Virus record (IMG/VR): IMGVR_UViG_3300034375_010109
Coordinates: 1 to 40,828 of that record
From: a virus
Direction: 5' to 3' (one strand)
Length of the DNA: 40,828 nt
Part shown: positions 2,857 to 40,788 of the stretch, one piece after another
Layout of the letters: every line of letters starts with the position of its first letter
How positions within the stretch are numbered: the stretch's first letter is position 1
Position numbers and translations under genes: made by a program
Notes under the pieces: model-generated
The model's input: only the letters and a program-made list of their open reading frames with translations
The model's database searches: none
Told to the model about the DNA's origin: nothing

Positions 2857-5800
2857 GATTTTTCTGAAGAGTTATTATCAATGCCATTAATTTCTTCAAG
2901 TCTATTTATACGTTTTTGTTGTTCTTTAATGGCCTCAATCAGTAGAGCAGTTATGTTACCGTAAGCGACTGACTTGGTATCATTATCAATATTATGAATA
3001 ACGACTTCTGGAAAAACCTTTTCAAGTTCCTGTGCAATAACACCAGCATAACGAATATTCTTTTCATCATCGGTTCTGGCAAAAGTAATACCACGAATAG
3101 ACATCACTTTACCAAGAGCACCTTCAATAAGTCTAATATCCTTTTTCAATCTCCCATCAGAATATGCAGTAACATTACCAGAAAGTGTGAGAGAGTTTGT
3201 TGATGCGTTATATTCCATTCCAGCATCAACTAATGGAGTTTGATCTCCAGCAGTAGAAGCTCCAACCAAGACTGGATATGTTGTGGTGTCTGAAGTAGTA
3301 GAGACATTAACAACATTGGAGGGGCCAGCAGGACCTGTTGGACCTGTAGGACCAGTGCCACCAGTAGTACCTTGAGGACCTGTAGGACCAGTACCACCAT
3401 CAGTTCCTTGAGGACCAGTTGCACCAGCAGTTCCAGTGGTTCCTTGAGGACCTGTTGGACCAGTATCACCAGTGGTTCCCTGAGGTCCTGTAGGACCAGT
3501 GGGACCGGTGCTTGGTGAAACCCAATGCCAACCACCAGAACCATCAGCAGCAATAATAGATGATGCCGCACCTACTTGGTCGTTCTTATCGTAAATGCCA
3601 CCATTCAGTTTAGTATCACCTAGAACCTCAAAGTCACCGGAGAAGTTGATCGTGCCATCAGACTTAATCCTCATCCGCTCCGTCGGGGTGCTCGCCCCAT
3701 CCGCCGTGGTACTGAAGACAAGACGGCCTGGATAGTCACCACTTGAGCTTGGAGCATCACCTTCTGCGGCAATCTGAGCAAAGACTCCGCTGGCATTGTC
3801 TGCAAAATTGATAATACCGATGGATGATCCGTTGCCTATGGAGGCCCCTGCTGCTTGGCCTCGCTGTAGATATAGATAAGACGGACCTGTTGTTGAGGAA
3901 CTGCTGCCTTGTGCAAAAATTGTACCTGTGGCAGAAGTAGAATCCGTGCCAACTAAGAGCCGGCCCGCGCTGTCGAGGCGGGCACGTTCGGTGCCAGCAG
4001 CGGCGGACCCTGTATGAAATGCAATGCCATGTAAAGCAGAATAGTGGATAAGTCCTGACGTAGACGTTTCGTGCCAGACGCCACCTAGGTGAGTTCCCTC
4101 TTGCAAATACCGTGTGGCGTAAAAATTTCCGCCCGTATTAACAGTTGAATTGAGGCCAATTCCGTATCTGCTCGCAGCCGATGCGTTTATGGTTAGTGTC
4201 GATACAGAATCAGTGCTACCTTCTCCAATAAGCAACTGAGCGCCAGAAGCTCCGACGTGTAAGTTAGCTCCAGGACTCTCCGTGCCAATCCCTACACGTT
4301 GTGAGTTATCAATATGCAGCGCATTAACAAGTGTGTTACTAGGTCCGGCTGTGCCGATATTCAAGAAACCGCCATTGACACTGGCGCGACGATCTTGAGC
4401 TTCAATTCGAGCGCGAATCTCTTGATTAAATCCTCGAAAGTCGATATACGTGCTAGCAGGAGACGCACTAGAACCCAAAGTTGAGGTACGAAGCCGAATT
4501 GTTGGCGATGAACCACCTTCTACATGAAGCAGATCTTGTGGGCTACTAGTCCCCACACTCAGGTTGCCTGCAAACGTGCCGCTGCCGTCTGATGCGTTAA
4601 GAGTGATTTGGTCGGTACCGAACGTCAGGTTACCTTCCTTGTTGTCGTCAACATCAGACCTCACGAACTGAGTACTATTAAGTCCCTGCAAAGTATCTGC
4701 ATCGGTAGTTGTTAGTCCACCAGGACCTTGAATACCTTGGATACCTTGGGCACCGTCTTCACCAACACCTGCAATACCCTGGGTTCCCTGAATACCTTGA
4801 ATACCCTGAATACCTTGAATTCCCTGAATACCCTGAATACCTTGAATTCCCTGAATACCCTGGATACCTTGAGTTCCCTGAACACCTTGGATACCTAAAG
4901 TACCCTGAATACCCTGAATTCCTTGAATTCCTTGAATGCCCTGTATTCCTTGAGTACCTTGGATACCTTGAGTACCAGTTGATCCAATACCACCCTGGAT
5001 ACCTTGAATTCCCTGAATACCTTGTGTTCCTTGAGAAGCTTGAATACCCTGAATTCCTTGAATACCCTGAATACCCTGAATACCCTGAATTCCTTGAATT
5101 CCTTGAATGCCCTGTATTCCTTGAGTACCTTGGATACCTTGAGTACCAGTTGATCCAATACCACCCTGGATACCTTGAATTCCCTGAATACCTTGTGTTC
5201 CTTGAGAAGCTTGAATACCCTGAATTCCTTGAATACCCTGAATACCTTGAGCACCAGTTGATCCAATACCACCCTGGATACCCTGTATCCCTTGAATTCC
5301 TTGAGATCCATCAAGACCTTGAATACCCTGAAGACCTTGAAGACCTATTGTTCCCTGAATTCCTTGTGAACCAGTATCACCCTGATCACCAGTTCTAGCA
5401 AATGTAATTCTTAATTCCTCACCATTGGTAAAAGAAGTTACACTTCCAGAAACATAAGAACAATTTACTCCAAAATATCCAGTGTTATCTGTAAGTGAAG
5501 TAATTGAATAAAGAACAAAAGAGGATGAATCAGTTTCTTTAGATATTCTGAAATGACCTTTAATAGTTGATGTTGAATCATCAATGGTCTGTAAGAAATT
5601 GGTTATATCAGTTCCATTATTATCTTCATCGTCGATGAATAATTCGGTGGCTAAAGTTAGATTTGCATTATTGAGTTTTAAATCACCGGAGCCTGGATCA
5701 CTATCATTAGTATCATTATCAAAGTTATATTCAAAAGTAGCTCCACCAAAATCACCAGTGGTTCCTTGAGTTCCTGTTGTACCCTGAATACCTTGTATGC

Positions 5801-8033
5801 CTTGTATACCTTGAGAAGCTTGAGTTCCTTGAATACCCTGAATACCTTGTATTCCCTGAATTCCCTGAATTCCTTGGATACCCTGAATTCCTTGTGTTCC
5901 TTGAACACCTTGAATACCCTGGATACCTTGAGCACCAGTTGATCCAATACCACCTTGTATTCCTTGAATACCCTGGATACCTTGAATACCTTGAATTCCC
6001 TGAATACCTTGAGCACCAGTTGATCCAATACCACCCTGTATTCCTTGAATACCTTGAATGCCCTGGATACCTTGGATGCCCTGTATTCCTTGAGTACCTT
6101 GGATACCCTGAACACCTTGAATACCCTGAATACCTTGTGTTCCTTGAGAAGCTTGAATTCCCTGAATACCCTGGACACCTTGGATACCCTGGATGCCTTG
6201 AGTACCTTGAATTCCAGTATTTCCATAAGTTCCTTGTGGACCGGCAGGACCAGTGTCACCAGTTATCCCCACATTACCTTGTATACCTTGGATACCCTGT
6301 ATTCCCTGAATTCCTTGAATACCTTGAGTACCAGTTGATCCTGTAGGACCAGTGTCACCTGTATTTCCATAAGTTCCTTGTGAACCGGCAGGACCAGTAT
6401 TTCCACTATTTCCTTGAGTGCCCTGAGTTCCTTGAATACCCTGGATACCTTGAATTCCCTGAATACCTTGTGTTCCTTGAGAAGCTTGAATACCCTGAAT
6501 TCCTTGAATACCCTGAATACCTTGAGCACCAGTTGATCCAATACCACCTTGTATTCCTTGAATACCTTGAATACCCTGGATACCTTGAGCACCAGTTGAT
6601 CCAATGCCACCCTGGACACCTTGGATACCCTGGATGCCTTGGATGCCTTGGATACCTTGAGCACCAGTTGATCCAATACCACCCTGGACGCCTTGAATAC
6701 CTTGAATTCCCTGGATACCTTGAGCACCAGTTGATCCAATACCACCCTGTATTCCTTGAATACCTTGAATGCCCTGGATACCTTGGATGCCCTGTATTCC
6801 TTGAATACCCTGAATACCCTGAATTCCCTGGATACCCTGAATTCCCTGGATACCTTGAGCACCAGTTGATCCAATACCACCTTGTATTCCTTGAATACCT
6901 TGAATTCCCTGAGGGCCCTGAAGACCATTATTACCTTGAATACCGAAAGAACCTTGAATACCCTGAATTCCCTGAGGGCCCTGAAGACCATTATTACCTT
7001 GAATTCCTAAATTACCTTGAATACCCTGAATTCCCTGAGGGCCCTGAAGACCATTATTACCTTGAATACCGAAAGAACCTTGAATACCCTGAATACCTTG
7101 AGTACCAGTTGATCCAATACCACCCTGTATTCCTTGAATACCTTGAATACCTTGAGTTCCTTGAATACCTTGTATTCCTTGAGTTCCTTGAGTTCCTTGA
7201 ACACTGATACCCTGAGTTCCTTGAACACTAATACCCTGAATACCTTGAGTACCAGTTGATCCAATACCACCCTGTATTCCTTGAATACCTTGAATACCTT
7301 GAGTTCCTTGAATACCTTGTATTCCTTGAGTTCCTTGAGTTCCTTGAGTTCCCTGAACACTGATACCCTGAGTTCCTTGAACACTAATACCCTGAATACC
7401 TTGAGTTCCTTGAATACCTTGTATTCCTTGAGTTCCTTGAACACTGATACCCTGAGTTCCTTGAACACTAATACCCTGAATACCTTGAGTTCCTTGAATA
7501 CCCTGGAGGCCTTGTATTCCTTGAGTTCCTTGAACACTGATACCCTGAGTTCCTTGAACACTAATACCCTGAATACCTTGAGTTCCTTGAGAAGCTTGAG
7601 TACCCTGTATTCCCTGAGTACCTTGGATACCTTGAATACCTTGGATTCCTTGAGTTCCTTGAATACCCTGGAGGCCTTGTATTCCTTGAGTTCCTTGAAC
7701 ACTGATACCCTGAGTTCCTTGAACACTAATACCCTGAATACCTTGAGTTCCTTGAGAAGCTTGAGTACCCTGTATTCCCTGAGTACCTTGGATACCTTGA
7801 ATACCTTGGATTCCTTGAGTTCCTTGAATACCCTGGATACCCTGAATTCCCTGAGCAACAAAGGCACCATCAGTACCCTGAAGTCCAAAGTCACCTTGGA
7901 TACCTTGAATTCCTTGGATTCCTTGAATACCCTGAACACCAGCCGATGAAACAGAAATATCGTAATTTGTATTTTCCTTAGCAGAAACTCTATAGGTTTC
8001 TCCGCCGTTATAATTTACGTTATATTCTGACAT
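2853..8033 (-). CDS. Giant collagen-like tail fibre with C-terminal S74 intramolecular chaperone
   Basis: The 1726-aa fibre has a non-repetitive N-terminus (about 1-35). A long collagen-like GXQ region follows (about 36-763, mostly GIQ and GTQ triplets), then a beta-rich island (about 763-880, [12 protein letters not shown] onward) and a second GIQ region (about 880-1105). A head-fibre-like region (about 1106-1507) contains repeated VGIGTESP and NLSVGTSSP motifs. A short GPTGPQG stretch (about 1508-1570) precedes the S74 peptidase/chaperone domain (about 1622-1726). The S74 Ser-Lys pair fits S1625 and K1630 in SDGRLKKDI, with the same spacing as the endosialidase chaperone, so autocleavage just before S1625 after trimerisation is expected. 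The triplets contain almost no proline. The start overlaps nothing and lies 2 bases after the 111-aa gene. Host binding is inferred. Confidence 0.9.
3640..4700 (-). other. GC-richer segment inside the fibre gene, probable mosaic insertion
   Basis: By eye, this part of the fibre gene (residues about 1110-1465) is clearly richer in G and C than the collagen-like DNA before it and the structural genes elsewhere. Codons such as GCG, GCC, CGG and CCG cluster here. It encodes a VGIGTESP-type beta-rich region found in many marine phage fibres. It most likely came by recombination from a phage with higher GC content. Confidence 0.5.
4720..7930 (-). repeat. Coding GIQ/GTQ triplet repeats with larger nested repeats
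   Basis: Most of this stretch is built from 9-base units encoding Gly-Ile-Gln or Gly-Thr-Gln, broken by a unique island at about 5395-5745. Larger blocks are copied too. The block with [17 protein letters not shown] (twice) and GLQGIQ appears twice near 7500-7840. The [13 protein letters not shown] block recurs many times. Plus-strand open frames here (rich in YLEYPE or NTLNTLSS) are reading shadows of the repeat. Confidence 0.85.
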
Positions 8034-33687: not shown

Positions 33688-35763
33688 TTAATAAGTGGAG
33701 GTTGTTGAACCATTATTACTACTATTTACCATACTTGTAGAAGAGGAAGTTGAAGTACTGGTAGTGGTAGATACTGAAGAGGTGGACGTTGAAGTGGTAG
33801 ATGTCGAAGTGAATACTGGTGTTCCACGAACTAAACTTCCATTAGAATAACTAGAACTCACTTTGTAATTTGTACCCGAAATATCATCTCCAGATGCAAT
33901 TTGATCTGGAATCATAGTAACCGAAACAGAACTTAAATCGAGTTGTAGATATAAATCTTGTAGACCAATAACATCATTTGAATATGGAGTTGCAGATATC
34001 TCAACTAGTGGAATATCTTTGTTAACTTTTGTTGATAATATTTTTATAGGGTTAAGTTTAATCTCTCCCTTTATGTAATCGATTATACCAATATTCCTTT
34101 TCACAATTACTGGTTCTGTTGGTGAATTCAATTTAAATAAGAAAATAGTTCCAGTTTCCAAGTCACTGTTTGGAACATCACCAAGATAAACTGTTCCAGA
34201 AATTCCACTCACGGTAAATCCAGATGATTTGATATTATATCCAATAACATTACCATCGTAAGTAGAGGAATGTCCATGATTTTTGATATGAAATCTATTA
34301 CCAAAACAAATCTCATATTCAGCAAACTGATTTAAAAAAGCTGTCATATCTCTTCTCATATTGATAGTTGTAATATTTGATGTAATTGATTCATTACTAT
34401 TATCAATAATATTGAGATATTTACTGTACTTGAATCTAGCTCCAAACTTATTAAGATCTGATGAGTTGGAATAATTTGTAATGTTTTGGACAATAGTATC
34501 TTTTACATATGATGAAGATGGTGCAAGATTCGTATTATAATAAACGTTGGAATTTGATTCTATGTAAAGGTATTTCAGATCAATAATTTCTGGGACAATT
34601 CCAGCTACGGTATATTTTCTGAGTTCTGAGAGTATATTACTTTTTATAGTTGAGGATAGATATACACCATTATATGGTTTAATACTAATAAAAACTTTCC
34701 CGTATAAAGGTGGTGTAAGTTCTTCTCCACCAAAGGCAGACACAGATTCAGATTCTGGATAAATTTTAGGAATCAATGCTTCATAATCGGAAGAAGTAAC
34801 TGCTCTATTTTGAGATGCGTAAATTCTAGGAGCGTATTTTTTAATTGATTCGACACTTTCAATAGACTTGCCACCAAATGATTGATGATTTGTAGCAATT
34901 AATGAAACTCCCGATGTAATGGAGTTTCCACTATTATCTCTAAGTGTTCCTGAAAATGTGAAATTGGTTATATTGTTTGCATTTTCACCACTAGAAACGA
35001 TATAACTGACTTCAACAAAATTTGGTTCCTGTAGTTTCTTTCCAAATATACCGTCACCAAATAACAACTCATACCTTTCACTATCAATTTCTTCTAAAAA
35101 GTAAATCGGTGAATTGGGCCCAATTTCATAAAGATTATCATACTGTAAAAACTTCTCTGAAGTTCCAACATCTATAGCACTTTGAGAAGTTTTTACAATA
35201 ACTCTAATCAGAGAAGTGTCACATCCACTATTTGGTATAATAAATTTTTGATTTGGAGTTCTTGAATTTACGGTGTAAGTATTTTTAATGTATGTTCCTT
35301 CGTAGATATCAATATTGGTGAAGTTAGCAGTTCCAGTGGAGTCTACAGGAACTGTAATATCATCAGGAATTGAGAATATATAACTTTCATTACCAAAAGC
35401 ACGACTTGAAATAAATGCCGTTCCAGCTTTTAATGTAACTGTGACAGCTGTTGTATTTGATGCATCAACACTAAAAGATATATTTGCTACAGCTGATTTT
35501 CTTGATCTTGGAAGATATCCTATATTACGAGCTAGTGAAACTACATTTTCTCTTAAAGTTGCACTATCAATAAACACCTCATTTGTCACCATGTTGGCGT
35601 TGTATGAGGTTATGTAAGTATTATATGCAAGAGTATCGATAATCGTTGAAAGATTAGATCCCTCAAAGTCATAATCTGTAAAATTGGAATTTGATCGAAG
35701 ATAACTCTTGATAGAGTCTCTAATCTGATCAAAGTCTAGATTGCTAAAATTAACTAAAGGCAT
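33688..35763 (-). CDS. 6: Baseplate wedge protein gp6
   Basis: The 691-aa protein opens with FSNLDFDQIRDSIKSYLRSN, FTDYDFEGSNLSTIIDTLAY and DSATLRENVVSLARNIGYLP, the classic gp6/baseplate J-like N-terminus. Further in are YELLFGDGIFGKKLQEPNFV and APRIYASQNRAVTSSDYEAL, also typical. gp6 dimers form the inner ring of the baseplate wedge with gp7 and gp53. The length is close to T4 gp6 (660 aa). The last 45 residues are almost only Ser and Thr (STSTTSTSTSSVSTTTSTST type), an unusual low-complexity tail. Its ATG abuts the gp25 stop codon exactly (TAAATG). Confidence 0.93.
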   Translation of the reverse strand: MPLVNFSNLDFDQIRDSIKSYLRSNSNFTDYDFEGSNLSTIIDTLAYNTYITSYNANMVTNEVFIDSATLRENVVSLARNIGYLPRSRKSAVANISFSVDASNTTAVTVTLKAGTAFISSRAFGNESYIFSIPDDITVPVDSTGTANFTNIDIYEGTYIKNTYTVNSRTPNQKFIIPNSGCDTSLIRVIVKTSQSAIDVGTSEKFLQYDNLYEIGPNSPIYFLEEIDSERYELLFGDGIFGKKLQEPNFVEVSYIVSSGENANNITNFTFSGTLRDNSGNSITSGVSLIATNHQSFGGKSIESVESIKKYAPRIYASQNRAVTSSDYEALIPKIYPESESVSAFGGEELTPPLYGKVFISIKPYNGVYLSSTIKSNILSELRKYTVAGIVPEIIDLKYLYIESNSNVYYNTNLAPSSSYVKDTIVQNITNYSNSSDLNKFGARFKYSKYLNIIDNSNESITSNITTINMRRDMTAFLNQFAEYEICFGNRFHIKNHGHSSTYDGNVIGYNIKSSGFTVSGISGTVYLGDVPNSDLETGTIFLFKLNSPTEPVIVKRNIGIIDYIKGEIKLNPIKILSTKVNKDIPLVEISATPYSNDVIGLQDLYLQLDLSSVSVTMIPDQIASGDDISGTNYKVSSSYSNGSLVRGTPVFTSTSTTSTSTSSVSTTTSTSTSSSTSMVNSSNNGSTTSTY
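33690..33830 (-). repeat. Low-complexity Ser/Thr tail at the end of gp6
   Basis: The C-terminal ~45 codons of gene 6 are degenerate repeats of Thr and Ser codons. The encoded tail would be disordered and may be variable by slippage. Confidence 0.6.
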
Positions 35764-36165
35764 TTACCTAGTGGGTTCCAAGATGAATGTGAGTTGTTGA
35801 ACTGGTATATCAATACCTACAATGAAGTATTTTATAGTCACATTAAACTCATAGCTATCAAAGTCTGGTTCTACTATGACTTCATTCAATTTAACCCGAG
35901 GTTCATATTGATTGATTGTATTTTCAATTTCACTTCGAATTGAAGTGGCAGTTAATTTATCAAAATTCTCAAATAATAATTCAGATACTCTTGAACCAAC
36001 TGTGGGTTGGAAAGGTTTATCACCGGGTTGTGTAAATACAAGATTACGAACTGATCTTGCAATGGCGTTAGCGTTTTTCAGTGAAATCAGATCAGAGTTG
36101 ATTGGGCTGATCTGAAAAGTAGCACTGATGTCTTTAAAACCTTTACTGACACGTTCAAGAGGCAC
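35764..36165 (-). CDS. 25: Baseplate wedge protein gp25 (gp25/W-like fold)
   Basis: The 133-aa protein contains DISATFQISPINSDLISLKN, ARSVRNLVFTQPGDKPFQPT and VGSRVSELLFENFD, the gp25 family hallmark. T4 gp25 is 132 aa. gp25 joins two gp6 subunits and the sheath at the baseplate inner ring, and the family is shared with other contractile machines. It is the first gene of the baseplate operon, with a late promoter 25 bases upstream. In T4 gene 25 lies in another cluster, so the direct 25-6 link is a cyanophage-type arrangement. Confidence 0.93.
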   Translation of the reverse strand: MPLERVSKGFKDISATFQISPINSDLISLKNANAIARSVRNLVFTQPGDKPFQPTVGSRVSELLFENFDKLTATSIRSEIENTINQYEPRVKLNEVIVEPDFDSYEFNVTIKYFIVGIDIPVQQLTFILEPTR

Positions 36166-37778: not shown

Positions 37779-38903
37779 TTAACGGATCATATCAATTGAT
37801 TTTTGAGATGTCCATGTCTCAATTTCAGTTCTCAATCGACCTTCTTTTTTCAATTTCTCATATCGTTTTGTGGCCTTTTTACGCCAATACTCAATGAGAT
37901 TATTTAATTCAAACTTATGATAGTTTTCAGGATTTGGAATCAATTTATCTTCTTTACCTATAATAACTTCTTTTGAATTCATAAATCCATAATTACAACT
38001 AAAAGTTCTTTTTCGTTCTGTCAGATTTTTTGCATAATCAATTGTTTTCATAAAGTCTTCCTTTTCATCAGGAAACTCCTTGAGACTCTTTTTCACTTCA
38101 GATACCCATTTAGTTTGCATCTTTCTCTTACGAGATGATGCAGTCAATGGGACAAGATGTTTGTTGTGATTTCGAACCTTGAAATAATCACATAACTCAT
38201 CATAGAGTTCGCCCTGAATTAAGGGTACTAAATCACTTACACTGAGACCAATGTATTTGATATAAGGTTTTAACCCATCATACTGTGATGATGATTTACT
38301 ACTTCCATAGAGAGATGTGGTCTCAAAAAAGGCTAGATCAGTATCATACTTTTCATCAAACTGTCTCTTCATCTCATGTGAGCAACAGAGTAACGAGAGC
38401 AACTTGCCACCGAGATAATTGTACCCAAATGGTTGTGTCGGAACAATATTAAATCCCATCACCATTCTATGATTTAAGTTCTTTAGATCTACAACTTCAC
38501 CTAATAGATCATTACGTGGTTTTGAATAAGTGGTCGGTGAACCCATTCGGATCATTCCGACATACTTTCCTGTATTCGTCTCTTCAATTAACCACCTTAA
38601 CTTTCTTCCTGGAATACTTCTCTCAATCTGATTACTTCCAGTGAGCTCAAGAAGATTACTAAAAAGTAAATGATATTTTTCTTTTCCCTGTTCCATTGTA
38701 TCAATACTATGAATCTTGAAGTTCATATCTTCAGGGCTCATGTCAAAATTATCAAAGACATAATCATTATCACTAAACAATGAATTCTCAAAGTTTCGAT
38801 ACTTCAGACATTCTAATTGATAATCAGAAATACTTTCAAATTTGAGATAATATTCTTTAAACTTCTTTGCAACATATCTTGCATCATCTGGTGATAAAAT
38901 CAT
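37779..38903 (-). CDS. DUF4338/DruA-like protein
   Basis: The 374-aa protein has the family pattern PGRKLRWLIEETNTGKYVGM (about 98-118), then MVMGFNIVPTQPFGYNYLGG and KLLSLLCC, then AFFETTSLYGSSKSSSQYDG (about 189-208) and YIKYIGLS. This matches my memory of DUF4338, found in DruA of the Druantia defence system, in transposon-linked bacterial genes and in some phages. The biochemical activity is not established. The C-terminus is basic and helical. A perfect TTGACA-N17-TAGAAT promoter lies 30 bases upstream, so it is probably expressed early from host polymerase, unlike the late genes downstream. Being a lone homologue, it need not act in defence. Confidence 0.65.
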   Translation of the reverse strand: MILSPDDARYVAKKFKEYYLKFESISDYQLECLKYRNFENSLFSDNDYVFDNFDMSPEDMNFKIHSIDTMEQGKEKYHLLFSNLLELTGSNQIERSIPGRKLRWLIEETNTGKYVGMIRMGSPTTYSKPRNDLLGEVVDLKNLNHRMVMGFNIVPTQPFGYNYLGGKLLSLLCCSHEMKRQFDEKYDTDLAFFETTSLYGSSKSSSQYDGLKPYIKYIGLSVSDLVPLIQGELYDELCDYFKVRNHNKHLVPLTASSRKRKMQTKWVSEVKKSLKEFPDEKEDFMKTIDYAKNLTERKRTFSCNYGFMNSKEVIIGKEDKLIPNPENYHKFELNNLIEYWRKKATKRYEKLKKEGRLRTEIETWTSQKSIDMIR

Positions 38904-38932: not shown

Positions 38933-38961
38933 ATTCTACTTAGATTTATCTCTCCTGTCAA
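38933..38961 (-). promoter_or_regulatory. Sigma70-type promoter for the DruA-like gene
   Basis: The minus strand reads TTGACA (38956-38961), 17 bases, TAGAAT (38933-38938), 30 bases upstream of the ATG. It shares GGTTCTTGACA and AGTAGAATGA with the promoter at 39303-39331. Confidence 0.75.
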
Positions 38962-38992
38962 GAACCATTTTTCTGCGGGGGGTCTTGAGACG

Positions 38993-39017
38993 AAAAAATT
39001 TCTGGGAGAATTTTTTT
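38993..39017. terminator. Strong AT-rich hairpin, terminator-like in both directions
   Basis: AAAAAATTTCT (38993-39003) pairs with AGAATTTTTT (39007-39016) around a GGG loop with one bulge. Runs of T on both strands make it a candidate bidirectional terminator. On the minus strand it would end the non-coding transcript from the 39303-39331 promoter. Confidence 0.5.
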
Positions 39018-39138
39018 ATTGGGCGGAAAATAACACGCGGTTTTTGTCACCTCTGTAGGTTAGGGAAGTTAGCGATTTTTATTCGGGGGGGTCATATATT
39101 ATAACCCTTTCAGACCCCACTCAGAACCCCTACAGGCC

Positions 39139-39234
39139 ATTATACCTTATACCCTTATACCATTATACCCTTATACCTTATACCATTATACCCTTATACC
39201 ATTATACCCTTATACCATTATACCCTTATACTTA
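39139..39234. repeat. Tandem array of 16-bp units (ATTATACCCTTATACC)
   Basis: About six near-perfect 16-bp units, some truncated, are read as GGTATAAGGGTATAAT on the minus strand, so each whole unit carries a TATAAT. No reading frame runs through it. It could be an iteron-like binding array, a promoter decoy or slippage-prone filler. Confidence 0.85.
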
Positions 39235-39302
39235 TATCACGTTACACGATCCACGGGGTTACACACAAACCCCCATAAGCCTGTCGATTTGATTATACTG
39301 TC

Positions 39303-39331
39303 ATTCTACTATAAGGGGAGGAAAGTGTCAA
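39303..39331 (-). promoter_or_regulatory. Sigma70-type promoter heading a non-coding stretch
   Basis: The minus strand reads TTGACA (39326-39331), 17 bases, TAGAAT (39303-39308). The next gene is about 400 bases downstream and has its own promoter. Confidence 0.75.
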
Positions 39332-39348
39332 GAACCCTCCCCCCTTAT
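39311..39348. repeat. Inverted repeat spanning the -35 region
   Basis: ATAAGGGGAGG (39311-39321) pairs with CCTCCCCCCTTAT (39336-39348), 11 bp with a 2-base bulge, flanking the TTGACA box. It may be an operator, or a terminator stem for the 44-aa gene that ends 8 bases upstream of it. Confidence 0.6.
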
Positions 39349-39355
39349 GTGTATA

Positions 39356-39490
39356 TCAGAACTCCAATTCCTCCAGAGTAGGCTCATTCACCTGACTCAT
39401 ATCTTCAGAGACAATAGCTTCAAGAATGTCAAGGATTTCGTTGCCAGTGTTACCCTTACGAAGCAGAGAGATCATGATAGACTTGGACAT
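39356..39490 (-). CDS. Small conserved protein (44 aa), cyanobacterial/cyanophage type
   Basis: The protein starts MSKSIMISLLRKGNTGNEIL and ends NEPTLEELEF. It is acidic and helical and resembles short proteins seen in marine Synechococcus and their phages (ISLLRQGNTG-type). The function is unknown. Its upstream region shares an element with the 38-aa gene before it, suggesting parallel regulation. Confidence 0.65.
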   Translation of the reverse strand: MSKSIMISLLRKGNTGNEILDILEAIVSEDMSQVNEPTLEELEF

Positions 39491-40645: not shown

Positions 40646-40788
40646 GATAACAAGACCTGGAAGATTAACAAGGCCTCGAAGGTTTATAAGATAACAAGGC
40701 CTCGAAGGTTTATAAGATAACAAGGCCTCGAAGGTTTATAAGATAACAAGACCTGGAAGATTAACAAGACCTGGAAGATTAACAAGAT
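40646..40788 (+). repeat. Tandem array of two alternating unit types
   Basis: The array is one copy of an ACAAGACCTGGAAGATTA type unit, three copies of a 26-bp unit with ACAAGGCCTCGAAGGTTTAT, then two more copies of the first type. Each 26-bp unit has stops, and its length is not a multiple of 3, so no frame survives on either strand. Confidence 0.85.

What the first reader, a model, noticed from the sequence alone, without database searches (positions are those of the whole stretch)
38990..39340. Gene-less transcription unit with a TATAAT-rich tandem array
A minus-strand promoter (39303-39331) is followed by about 300 bases with no gene, a 16-bp tandem array and a strong hairpin (38993-39017). 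The next gene then has its own promoter. This has the form of a stand-alone non-coding RNA, or of a replication or protein-binding site. The minus-strand repeats contain many TATAAT boxes and could also titrate sigma factor.
Basis: partly seen in the sequence, partly recalled or inferred. Interest (0 to 1): 0.6.

Follow-up and report, generated by a model that had tools for sequence, protein, structure and literature searches.

The report
Conserved non-coding element of marine cyanophages
The gene-free stretch holds a short DNA element that nearly all sampled T4-like viruses of marine cyanobacteria carry once, in the same place, without it having been annotated; it may be where the virus starts copying its DNA, while the eye-catching tandem repeat beside it is a variable local expansion.

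Summary
The window is a fragment of a T4-like cyanophage (Kyanoviridae). The 'strong hairpin' is weak (-2.1 kcal/mol). The array is not conserved: near-identical relatives have about 12, 8 and 2 units. About 70 bp downstream lies something better: a core (39045-39072, minus; CTAACTTCCCTAACCTACAGAGGTGACA) preceded by an AT block, found once per genome, intergenic, sense strand, 1.6-5 kb upstream of gp25-gp6-gp7. Present in 10 of 10 genomes chosen by similarity (9 carry the 15-mer within 2 mismatches; DSL-LC03 is divergent), in 7 of 7 genomes chosen blindly by gp25 (one weak), divergent in S-PM2, and in more than 100 metagenomic viral contigs. No Rfam match, no conserved RNA structure, the transcript folds worse than shuffles, no terminator enriched. 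A sigma70-like promoter 80-100 bp upstream is enriched threefold. The adjacent gene varies, so it looks like a cis-acting DNA site. Leading, unproven reading: a transcription-coupled T4-type replication origin (about 0.4). Rivals: late-block promoter or leader, packaging site, sRNA. GC skew gives no support.

The parts
39356..39490 (-). 44-aa ORF that ends upstream of the gene-less stretch
   Evidence: Read from the sequence; the DNA of this ORF matches annotated hypothetical genes of S-B05, RN05-S, RB11-B and S-B43.
39303..39331 (-). sigma70-type promoter match TTGACA-17-TAGAAT, in front of the array
   Evidence: 11 of 12 positions; conserved in close relatives L005 and L006.
39140..39231 (-). 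Variable tandem array, 8-bp units TATAAGGG/TATAATGG, C-free on this strand
   Evidence: about 12 units here, about 8 in L005, 2 in L006; base composition.
39085..39135 (-). G-rich then C-rich stretch (GGGGTC...GACCCCCCC) that can fold; matches the GC-rich block found upstream of the AT block in relatives
   Evidence: Fold -14.4 kcal/mol; duplex-stability peak at -40..-20 across 87 loci.
39075..39083 (-). AT block (AATAAAAAT; consensus TATATAAAAA in relatives)
   Evidence: A at 92-97% in core offsets -15..-12 of 101 loci; stability trough at -20..0.
39045..39072 (-). Conserved core CTAACTTCCCTAACCTACAGAGGTGACA
   Evidence: single copy per genome.
38993..39019 (-).
   Evidence: fold only -2.1 kcal/mol.
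38933..38961 (-). Separate sigma70-type promoter match in front of the 374-aa ORF
   Evidence: in L006 a stretch of foreign DNA of about 0.75 kb lies between this promoter and the element.
37779..38903 (-). 374-aa ORF, phrog_19197, unknown function; next gene downstream
33688..36165 (-). gp25 and gp6 baseplate wedge genes; anchor for the element's conserved position
   Evidence: PHROG matches 261 and 219.

Best explanation
SHOWN: the locus holds a short cis-acting non-coding element that is conserved across Kyanoviridae, single-copy, sense-oriented and positioned between the tiny-gene (hyperplastic) region and the gp25-gp6-gp7 baseplate block. Its layout is: sigma70-like promoter, a GC-rich block (in many lineages GT-rich and A-poor, or as here a C-free repeat array), an AT block (TATATAAAAA), 6-8 variable bases, the core ACTACCCTAACCTACARAGGT, a short ATAT stretch and an A-tract. 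INFERRED: it is a T4-type replication origin. Host RNA polymerase would start a gene-less transcript at the upstream promoter; the RNA would be held or processed at the AT/core segment and prime leading-strand synthesis, with the core acting as a binding, processing or entry site. In this lineage the repeat array has expanded by slippage between promoter and core and need not be functional.
For: Universal and unbiased presence: all 7 genomes picked only by their gp25 have it, intergenic and in sense (ACG-2014f is weak, E 0.18), and S-PM2 has a divergent copy in the matching gap. Single copy per genome. Not tied to one adjacent gene. DNA-like rather than RNA-like conservation: no conserved helix, transcript folds worse than shuffles, no Rfam match. 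Promoter-like sites enriched with the -10 at -100..-80 (34 of 100 loci against 9.9 in shuffles). Stability peak then AT trough. Minimal T4 oriF/oriG are about 100 bp of promoter plus A+T-rich unwinding element, and oriE relies on an early promoter (PMC3016281). T4 oriE is annotated 1.7 kb upstream of gene 6, a similar neighbourhood. A single theta origin has been predicted for Syn9 (PMC2984593), location not given there.
Against: No GC-skew switch at the element in six complete genomes. Sense-strand R-loop-initiating G clusters are not a conserved feature (3 of 87; antisense 10 of 87). The A-poor GT-rich stretch is extreme in S-SM2, P-SSM2 and Bellamy but not in Syn19, P-SSM7 or ACG-2014a. T4 oriE runs in the opposite direction, and T4 origins share no sequence motif, unlike this. 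The promoter is detected in only about a third of loci. In this window the promoter match lies about 240 bp from the core. No replication data were available.
Confidence: 0.4

Rival explanations
1. Promoter and 5' leader that drives or gates the structural (late) gene block: the AT block would be a -10-like element, the six variable bases a spacer, and the conserved core the start of the transcript, acting on RNA polymerase or translation of the downstream block.
For: Always in sense and upstream of gp25-gp6-gp7. The longest downstream ORF is in sense in 94 of 98 loci, often with a Shine-Dalgarno and ATG 60-120 nt after the core. Conservation restarts about 6 nt after the AT block, the spacing expected for a T4-type late promoter.
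Against: No T4 late promoter TATAAATA within 60 bp of the core in 87 loci. The directly downstream gene differs between lineages, and reverse-strand genes stand between the element and gp25 in DSL-LC02 and DSL-LC03. A separate promoter match precedes the next gene in the window.
Confidence: 0.27
2. DNA packaging start or other physical-end site: terminase or a nick acts near the element and marks genome ends.
For: The RN05-S record begins 23 nt into the element and the S-SZBM1 record ends 55 nt before the core; S-PRM1, WH25-B and S-M1 records also end within about 600 bp of it. Metagenomic contigs end 10 to 20 times more often per kb in the 2 kb upstream than in the 3 kb downstream.
Against: The ends are spread over about 1 kb and both sides, not at one point. 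Assembly breaks in a hypervariable, slippage-prone or GC-rich stretch explain them as well. The contig asymmetry fits strain variation in the hyperplastic region. S-SZBM1 was reported as circularly permuted (PMC9146016).
Confidence: 0.13
3. Small regulatory RNA with an unstructured conserved seed (CCUAACCUACA) that base-pairs with host or phage mRNAs.
For: Upstream promoter enrichment and an ultraconserved C/A-rich, unstructured block.
Against: No terminator enrichment downstream (5 of 98 against 4.0 in shuffles), no conserved structure, fold worse than shuffles, and in many loci a gene start follows directly.
Confidence: 0.13
4. Sigma-factor titration or function of the TATAAT array itself, or nothing but slippage-prone spacer.
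For: The array carries many TATAAT/TATAAG boxes; L005 units read TGGTATAAT, like extended -10 elements.
Against: The array falls from about 12 to about 8 to 2 units in near-identical relatives, and the exact 32-mer of this array is in no other viral contig of the collection.
Confidence: 0.03

Closest known systems
Bacteriophage T4 oriF/oriG (R-loop origins)
   Same: About 100-bp unit of a promoter followed by an A+T-rich unwinding element, no dedicated gene (PMC3016281).
   Different: T4 uses MotA middle promoters, which cyanophages lack (PMC2984593); T4 origins share no common motif, whereas this element has a strongly conserved core; no replication evidence here.
Bacteriophage T4 oriE
   Same: Depends on an early promoter, contains short direct repeats (12-nt iterons), lies 1.7 kb upstream of gene 6; the cyanophage element lies upstream of gp25-gp6.
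   Different: oriE lies inside gene 5 and points the other way; the window's 8-bp repeats are not conserved across cyanophages; no detectable sequence similarity.
T4-type late promoter (TATAAATA / NATAAATA)
   Same: AT-rich -10-like block with about 6 nt before conserved sequence resumes.
   Different: The consensus is (TATA)TAAAAA, not TATAAATA (0 of 87), and a conserved 20-nt core follows.
PeSL cassettes of T4-type phages (early promoter plus stem-loop; named from memory)
   Same: Promoter plus hairpin in an intergenic gap of the hyperplastic region.
   Different: This element is single-copy and lacks a terminator stem-loop.

Membership tests
T4-type replication origin | Drives replication start (nascent DNA peak, autonomous plasmid replication in infected cells) | not testable with these tools
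   No read-depth or functional data are available here.
T4-type replication origin | Promoter that supplies the primer RNA | tested here: inconclusive
   Promoter-like sites at -100..-80 in 34 of 100 loci against 9.9 in shuffles; not detected in the rest.
T4-type replication origin | A+T-rich unwinding element downstream of the promoter | tested here: met
   Mean duplex stability falls to -1.18 at -20..0 and about -1.2 at +20..+80 after a peak of -1.55.
T4-type replication origin | R-loop potential (sense-strand G clusters; an auxiliary criterion, not required by T4 work) | tested here: not met
   3 of 87 loci in sense, 10 of 87 in antisense; present in the window itself at 39105-39130.
T4-type replication origin | Nucleotide-skew shift at the origin (typical, not universal) | tested here: not met
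   No switch in Syn19, S-SM2, P-SSM7, ACG-2014a, P-SSM2 or Bellamy.
T4 oriE | Evenly spaced iterons conserved in relatives | tested here: not met
   The array is limited to this lineage and varies from 2 to 12 units.
T4-type late promoter | TATAAATA octamer | tested here: not met
   0 of 87 loci within 60 bp of the core.
Known RNA families (Rfam 15) | Match at gathering score | tested here: not met
   0 matches in the window; only a chance-level hit with lax thresholds.
Structured or sRNA-type RNA | Conserved helices and a terminator | tested here: not met
   Alifold finds only a 4-bp stem in near-invariant columns; z = +2.6; terminators 5 of 98 against 4.0.
NtcA-binding site | GTA-N8-TAC | tested here: not met
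   0 of 87 loci at the core.

The most novel reading that the evidence does not exclude
The core is the single, family-wide replication origin of T4-like cyanophages: a motif-defined origin, unlike T4's several motif-less origins, and therefore a new initiation mode in a T4-like phage family.
Probability: 0.25. Interest if true: 0.85.

Novelty: new variant of a known kind. Interest (0 to 1): 0.58.

Why it matters
T4-like cyanophages are among the most abundant viruses in the sea, and no origin of replication or family-wide non-coding site came up in the literature searched here beyond a theta-origin prediction for Syn9. A single-copy, near-universal non-coding element gives a precise target for origin mapping, for transcription studies and for engineering cyanophage in the laboratory, and a marker for the boundary between the early tiny-gene region and the structural block.

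Tried and rejected
Rfam at gathering and lax thresholds: nothing. RNA consensus structure on 112 loci: none. Exact search for the array in viral contigs: none. GC-skew mapping of six complete genomes: uninformative, cumulative skew simply rises because nearly all genes lie on one strand. R-loop G-cluster scan: not enriched in sense. NtcA box and TATAAATA late promoter: absent. T4, Pelagibacter phage HTVC008M: no copy of the core found. Genome contigs: three hits, two in archaeal MAG bins that look like cyanophage contamination and one a chance match. Literature search for the motif and for cyanophage origins: no description found in the open library; Weigele 2007 and Doron 2016 are not held. 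Protein-coding reading of the core: rejected because it is annotated as a gene only in a few records, and conservation does not follow a reading frame (judged by eye, not tested).

Full report
What the window is. The 40.8-kb window is a viral fragment from IMG/VR. Minus-strand genes match T4-type baseplate and neck families (gp25 at 35764-36165, gp6 at 33688-35763, others) and the nearest records are Synechococcus phages of the Kyanoviridae.

Check of the observation. Between the 44-aa ORF ending at 39356 and the 374-aa ORF starting at 38903 there are about 450 bp without a gene. The promoter match at 39331-39303 and the one at 38961-38933 are there. The array at 39140-39231 is real; its unit is 8 bp. 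The hairpin at 38993-39017 is an A/T palindrome of -2.1 kcal/mol, and no terminator-like site was found.

The array is not the conserved part. Three close relatives with an identical neighbouring protein (L004, L005, L006) keep the flanks. Aligned from the promoter to the core, the window has about 12 units, L005 about 8 and L006 only 2; L004 is cut off inside the array. The 32-bp double unit of the window occurs in no other viral contig. On the minus strand the array is free of C. This is what replication slippage gives; a function of the array as such, including sigma-factor titration, has no support.

A family-wide element next to it. About 70 bp downstream of the array, blastn picked up a 39-bp match to an unannotated gap of phage S-SM2. 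The same block is in S-B05. An exact 16-mer from it (CCTAACCTACARAGGT) hit 120 viral stretches before the scan stopped at its limit. Aligned without gaps, 101 loci show AAAA at -15..-12 (92-97%), ACTAC at -5..-1 (74-90%), then CCTAACCTACARAGGT (fixed by the search), then a C at +18 (99%), a G at +24 (97%) and ATAT at +33..+36 (83-97%). Two versions occur, ACAGAGGTGACA and ACAAAGGTTCCC. Consensus queries hit 295 and 330 phage records, essentially all cyanophages, with one place per record; 434 Synechococcus or Cyanophage records have a gp25 match.

Unbiased test. To avoid choosing genomes by the motif, I took seven Kyanoviridae genomes from an even spread of gp25 matches and fetched DNA around gp25 only. 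A profile of the core found it in all seven on the sense strand; by the annotation tables all seven places are intergenic and upstream of gp25. Six keep CTAACCTACA exactly and ACG-2014f is weak (E 0.18; GCAACCTACAAACG). The T4 stretch tested had none. S-PM2, called anomalous among cyanophages, has a divergent copy (CCTAAGCTATAAACG) in the gap 1.7 kb before gp25. DSL-LC03 has a similar divergent form. In ten complete genomes searched with up to 3 mismatches the element is the only good match in nine; DSL-LC03's divergent copy lies outside that limit. Syn9 has it at 53505. HTVC008M and T4 have none at up to 2 mismatches. One search aligns 18 representatives.

Position. It always sits at the end of the region of tiny hypothetical genes and 1.6-5 kb before gp25 in the annotated genomes viewed, in the same direction. 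The gene directly after it differs between lineages, and reverse-strand genes stand between element and gp25 in DSL-LC02 and DSL-LC03. In L006 about 0.75 kb of other DNA separates element and 374-aa gene. So it is not the private leader of one gene.

Nature of the element. RNA consensus folding of 112 loci gives nothing but a 4-bp stem in near-invariant columns. The 311-nt transcript from the window's promoter folds less stably than every one of 100 shuffles (z = +2.6). Terminator-like sites are not enriched (5 of 98 against 4.0). There is no Rfam match. Promoter-like sites are enriched with their -10 at -100..-80 (34 of 100 against 9.9). Base composition changes from G/T-rich and A-poor (-60..-20) to A-rich, which is extreme in S-SM2, P-SSM2 and Bellamy but absent in Syn19, P-SSM7 and ACG-2014a. 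Duplex stability peaks at -40..-20 and falls at -20..0 and +20..+80. Direct repeats are more frequent than in shuffles around the element, mean 6.2 pairs against 0.8 at -200..-60, although a few loci dominate and other offsets are also above shuffles.

Mechanism. The evidence points to a DNA-level cis-acting site with transcription nearby. T4 origins oriF and oriG are about 100 bp of promoter plus A+T-rich unwinding element, and oriE relies on an early promoter and carries iterons (PMC3016281); oriE is annotated 1.7 kb upstream of gene 6. Cyanophages lack motA and asiA, have sigma70-like early promoters, and Syn9 was predicted to use a single theta origin (PMC2984593). A transcription-coupled origin explains universality, single copy, lack of a fixed partner gene and the promoter/AT layout. 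Against it: no GC-skew switch, no conserved sense-strand G clusters, opposite direction to oriE, promoter found in only a third of loci. I give it 0.4. A late-block promoter or leader is next (0.27): the spacing from AT block to conserved sequence is like that of a T4 late promoter, but the TATAAATA octamer is absent.

An unexplained hint. Two deposited genomes are cut inside the element or next to it: RN05-S starts 23 nt into it and S-SZBM1 ends 55 nt before the core. S-PRM1, WH25-B and S-M1 are cut within about 600 bp. By my hand count of roughly 24 listed records with unconventional starts this is far above chance, but the count was made after seeing the pattern, WH25-B and S-M1 are relatives, and authors choose starts. 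Metagenomic contigs end at 0.3-0.5 per kb in the 2 kb upstream but about 0.02-0.04 per kb in most of the 3 kb downstream; contig length filters and strain variation in the upstream region can contribute. A packaging site, a recombination boundary or assembly trouble could each explain it.

Verdict. The array is ordinary; the core beside it is a family-wide, unannotated element with an open function.

Noticed in passing
window 40661-40787: A second tandem array: 26-bp AAGATAACAAGGCCTCGAAGGTTTAT x3.8 followed by 18-bp AAGATTAACAAGACCTGG x2.7 at the end of the window.
   Followed up: no
window 37779-38903: The 374-aa protein (phrog_19197) lies beside clamp-loader or DNA polymerase genes in many isolate cyanophages and in HTVC008M, but here it stands between the element and the baseplate block: a relocated gene.
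   Followed up: partly
L215 (RN05-S 1-23); L214 (S-SZBM1 end): Deposited genome records begin or end inside or next to the conserved element.
   Followed up: partly
118 IMG/VR contigs around the element: Contig ends are 10-20 times denser per kb upstream of the element than downstream.
   Followed up: partly
L132, L134 (contigs in MAGs titled Woesearchaeota and Euryarchaeota): Contigs binned as archaeal carry the cyanophage element; probably viral contamination of the bins.
   Followed up: no
window 3330-7940: Long 9-bp-period repeats (collagen-like coding repeats) in a 1726-aa tail-region gene.
   Followed up: no
L006:4184-4928: A stretch unlike the window, holding an open frame, lies between element and 374-aa gene in an otherwise near-identical relative.
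   Followed up: no
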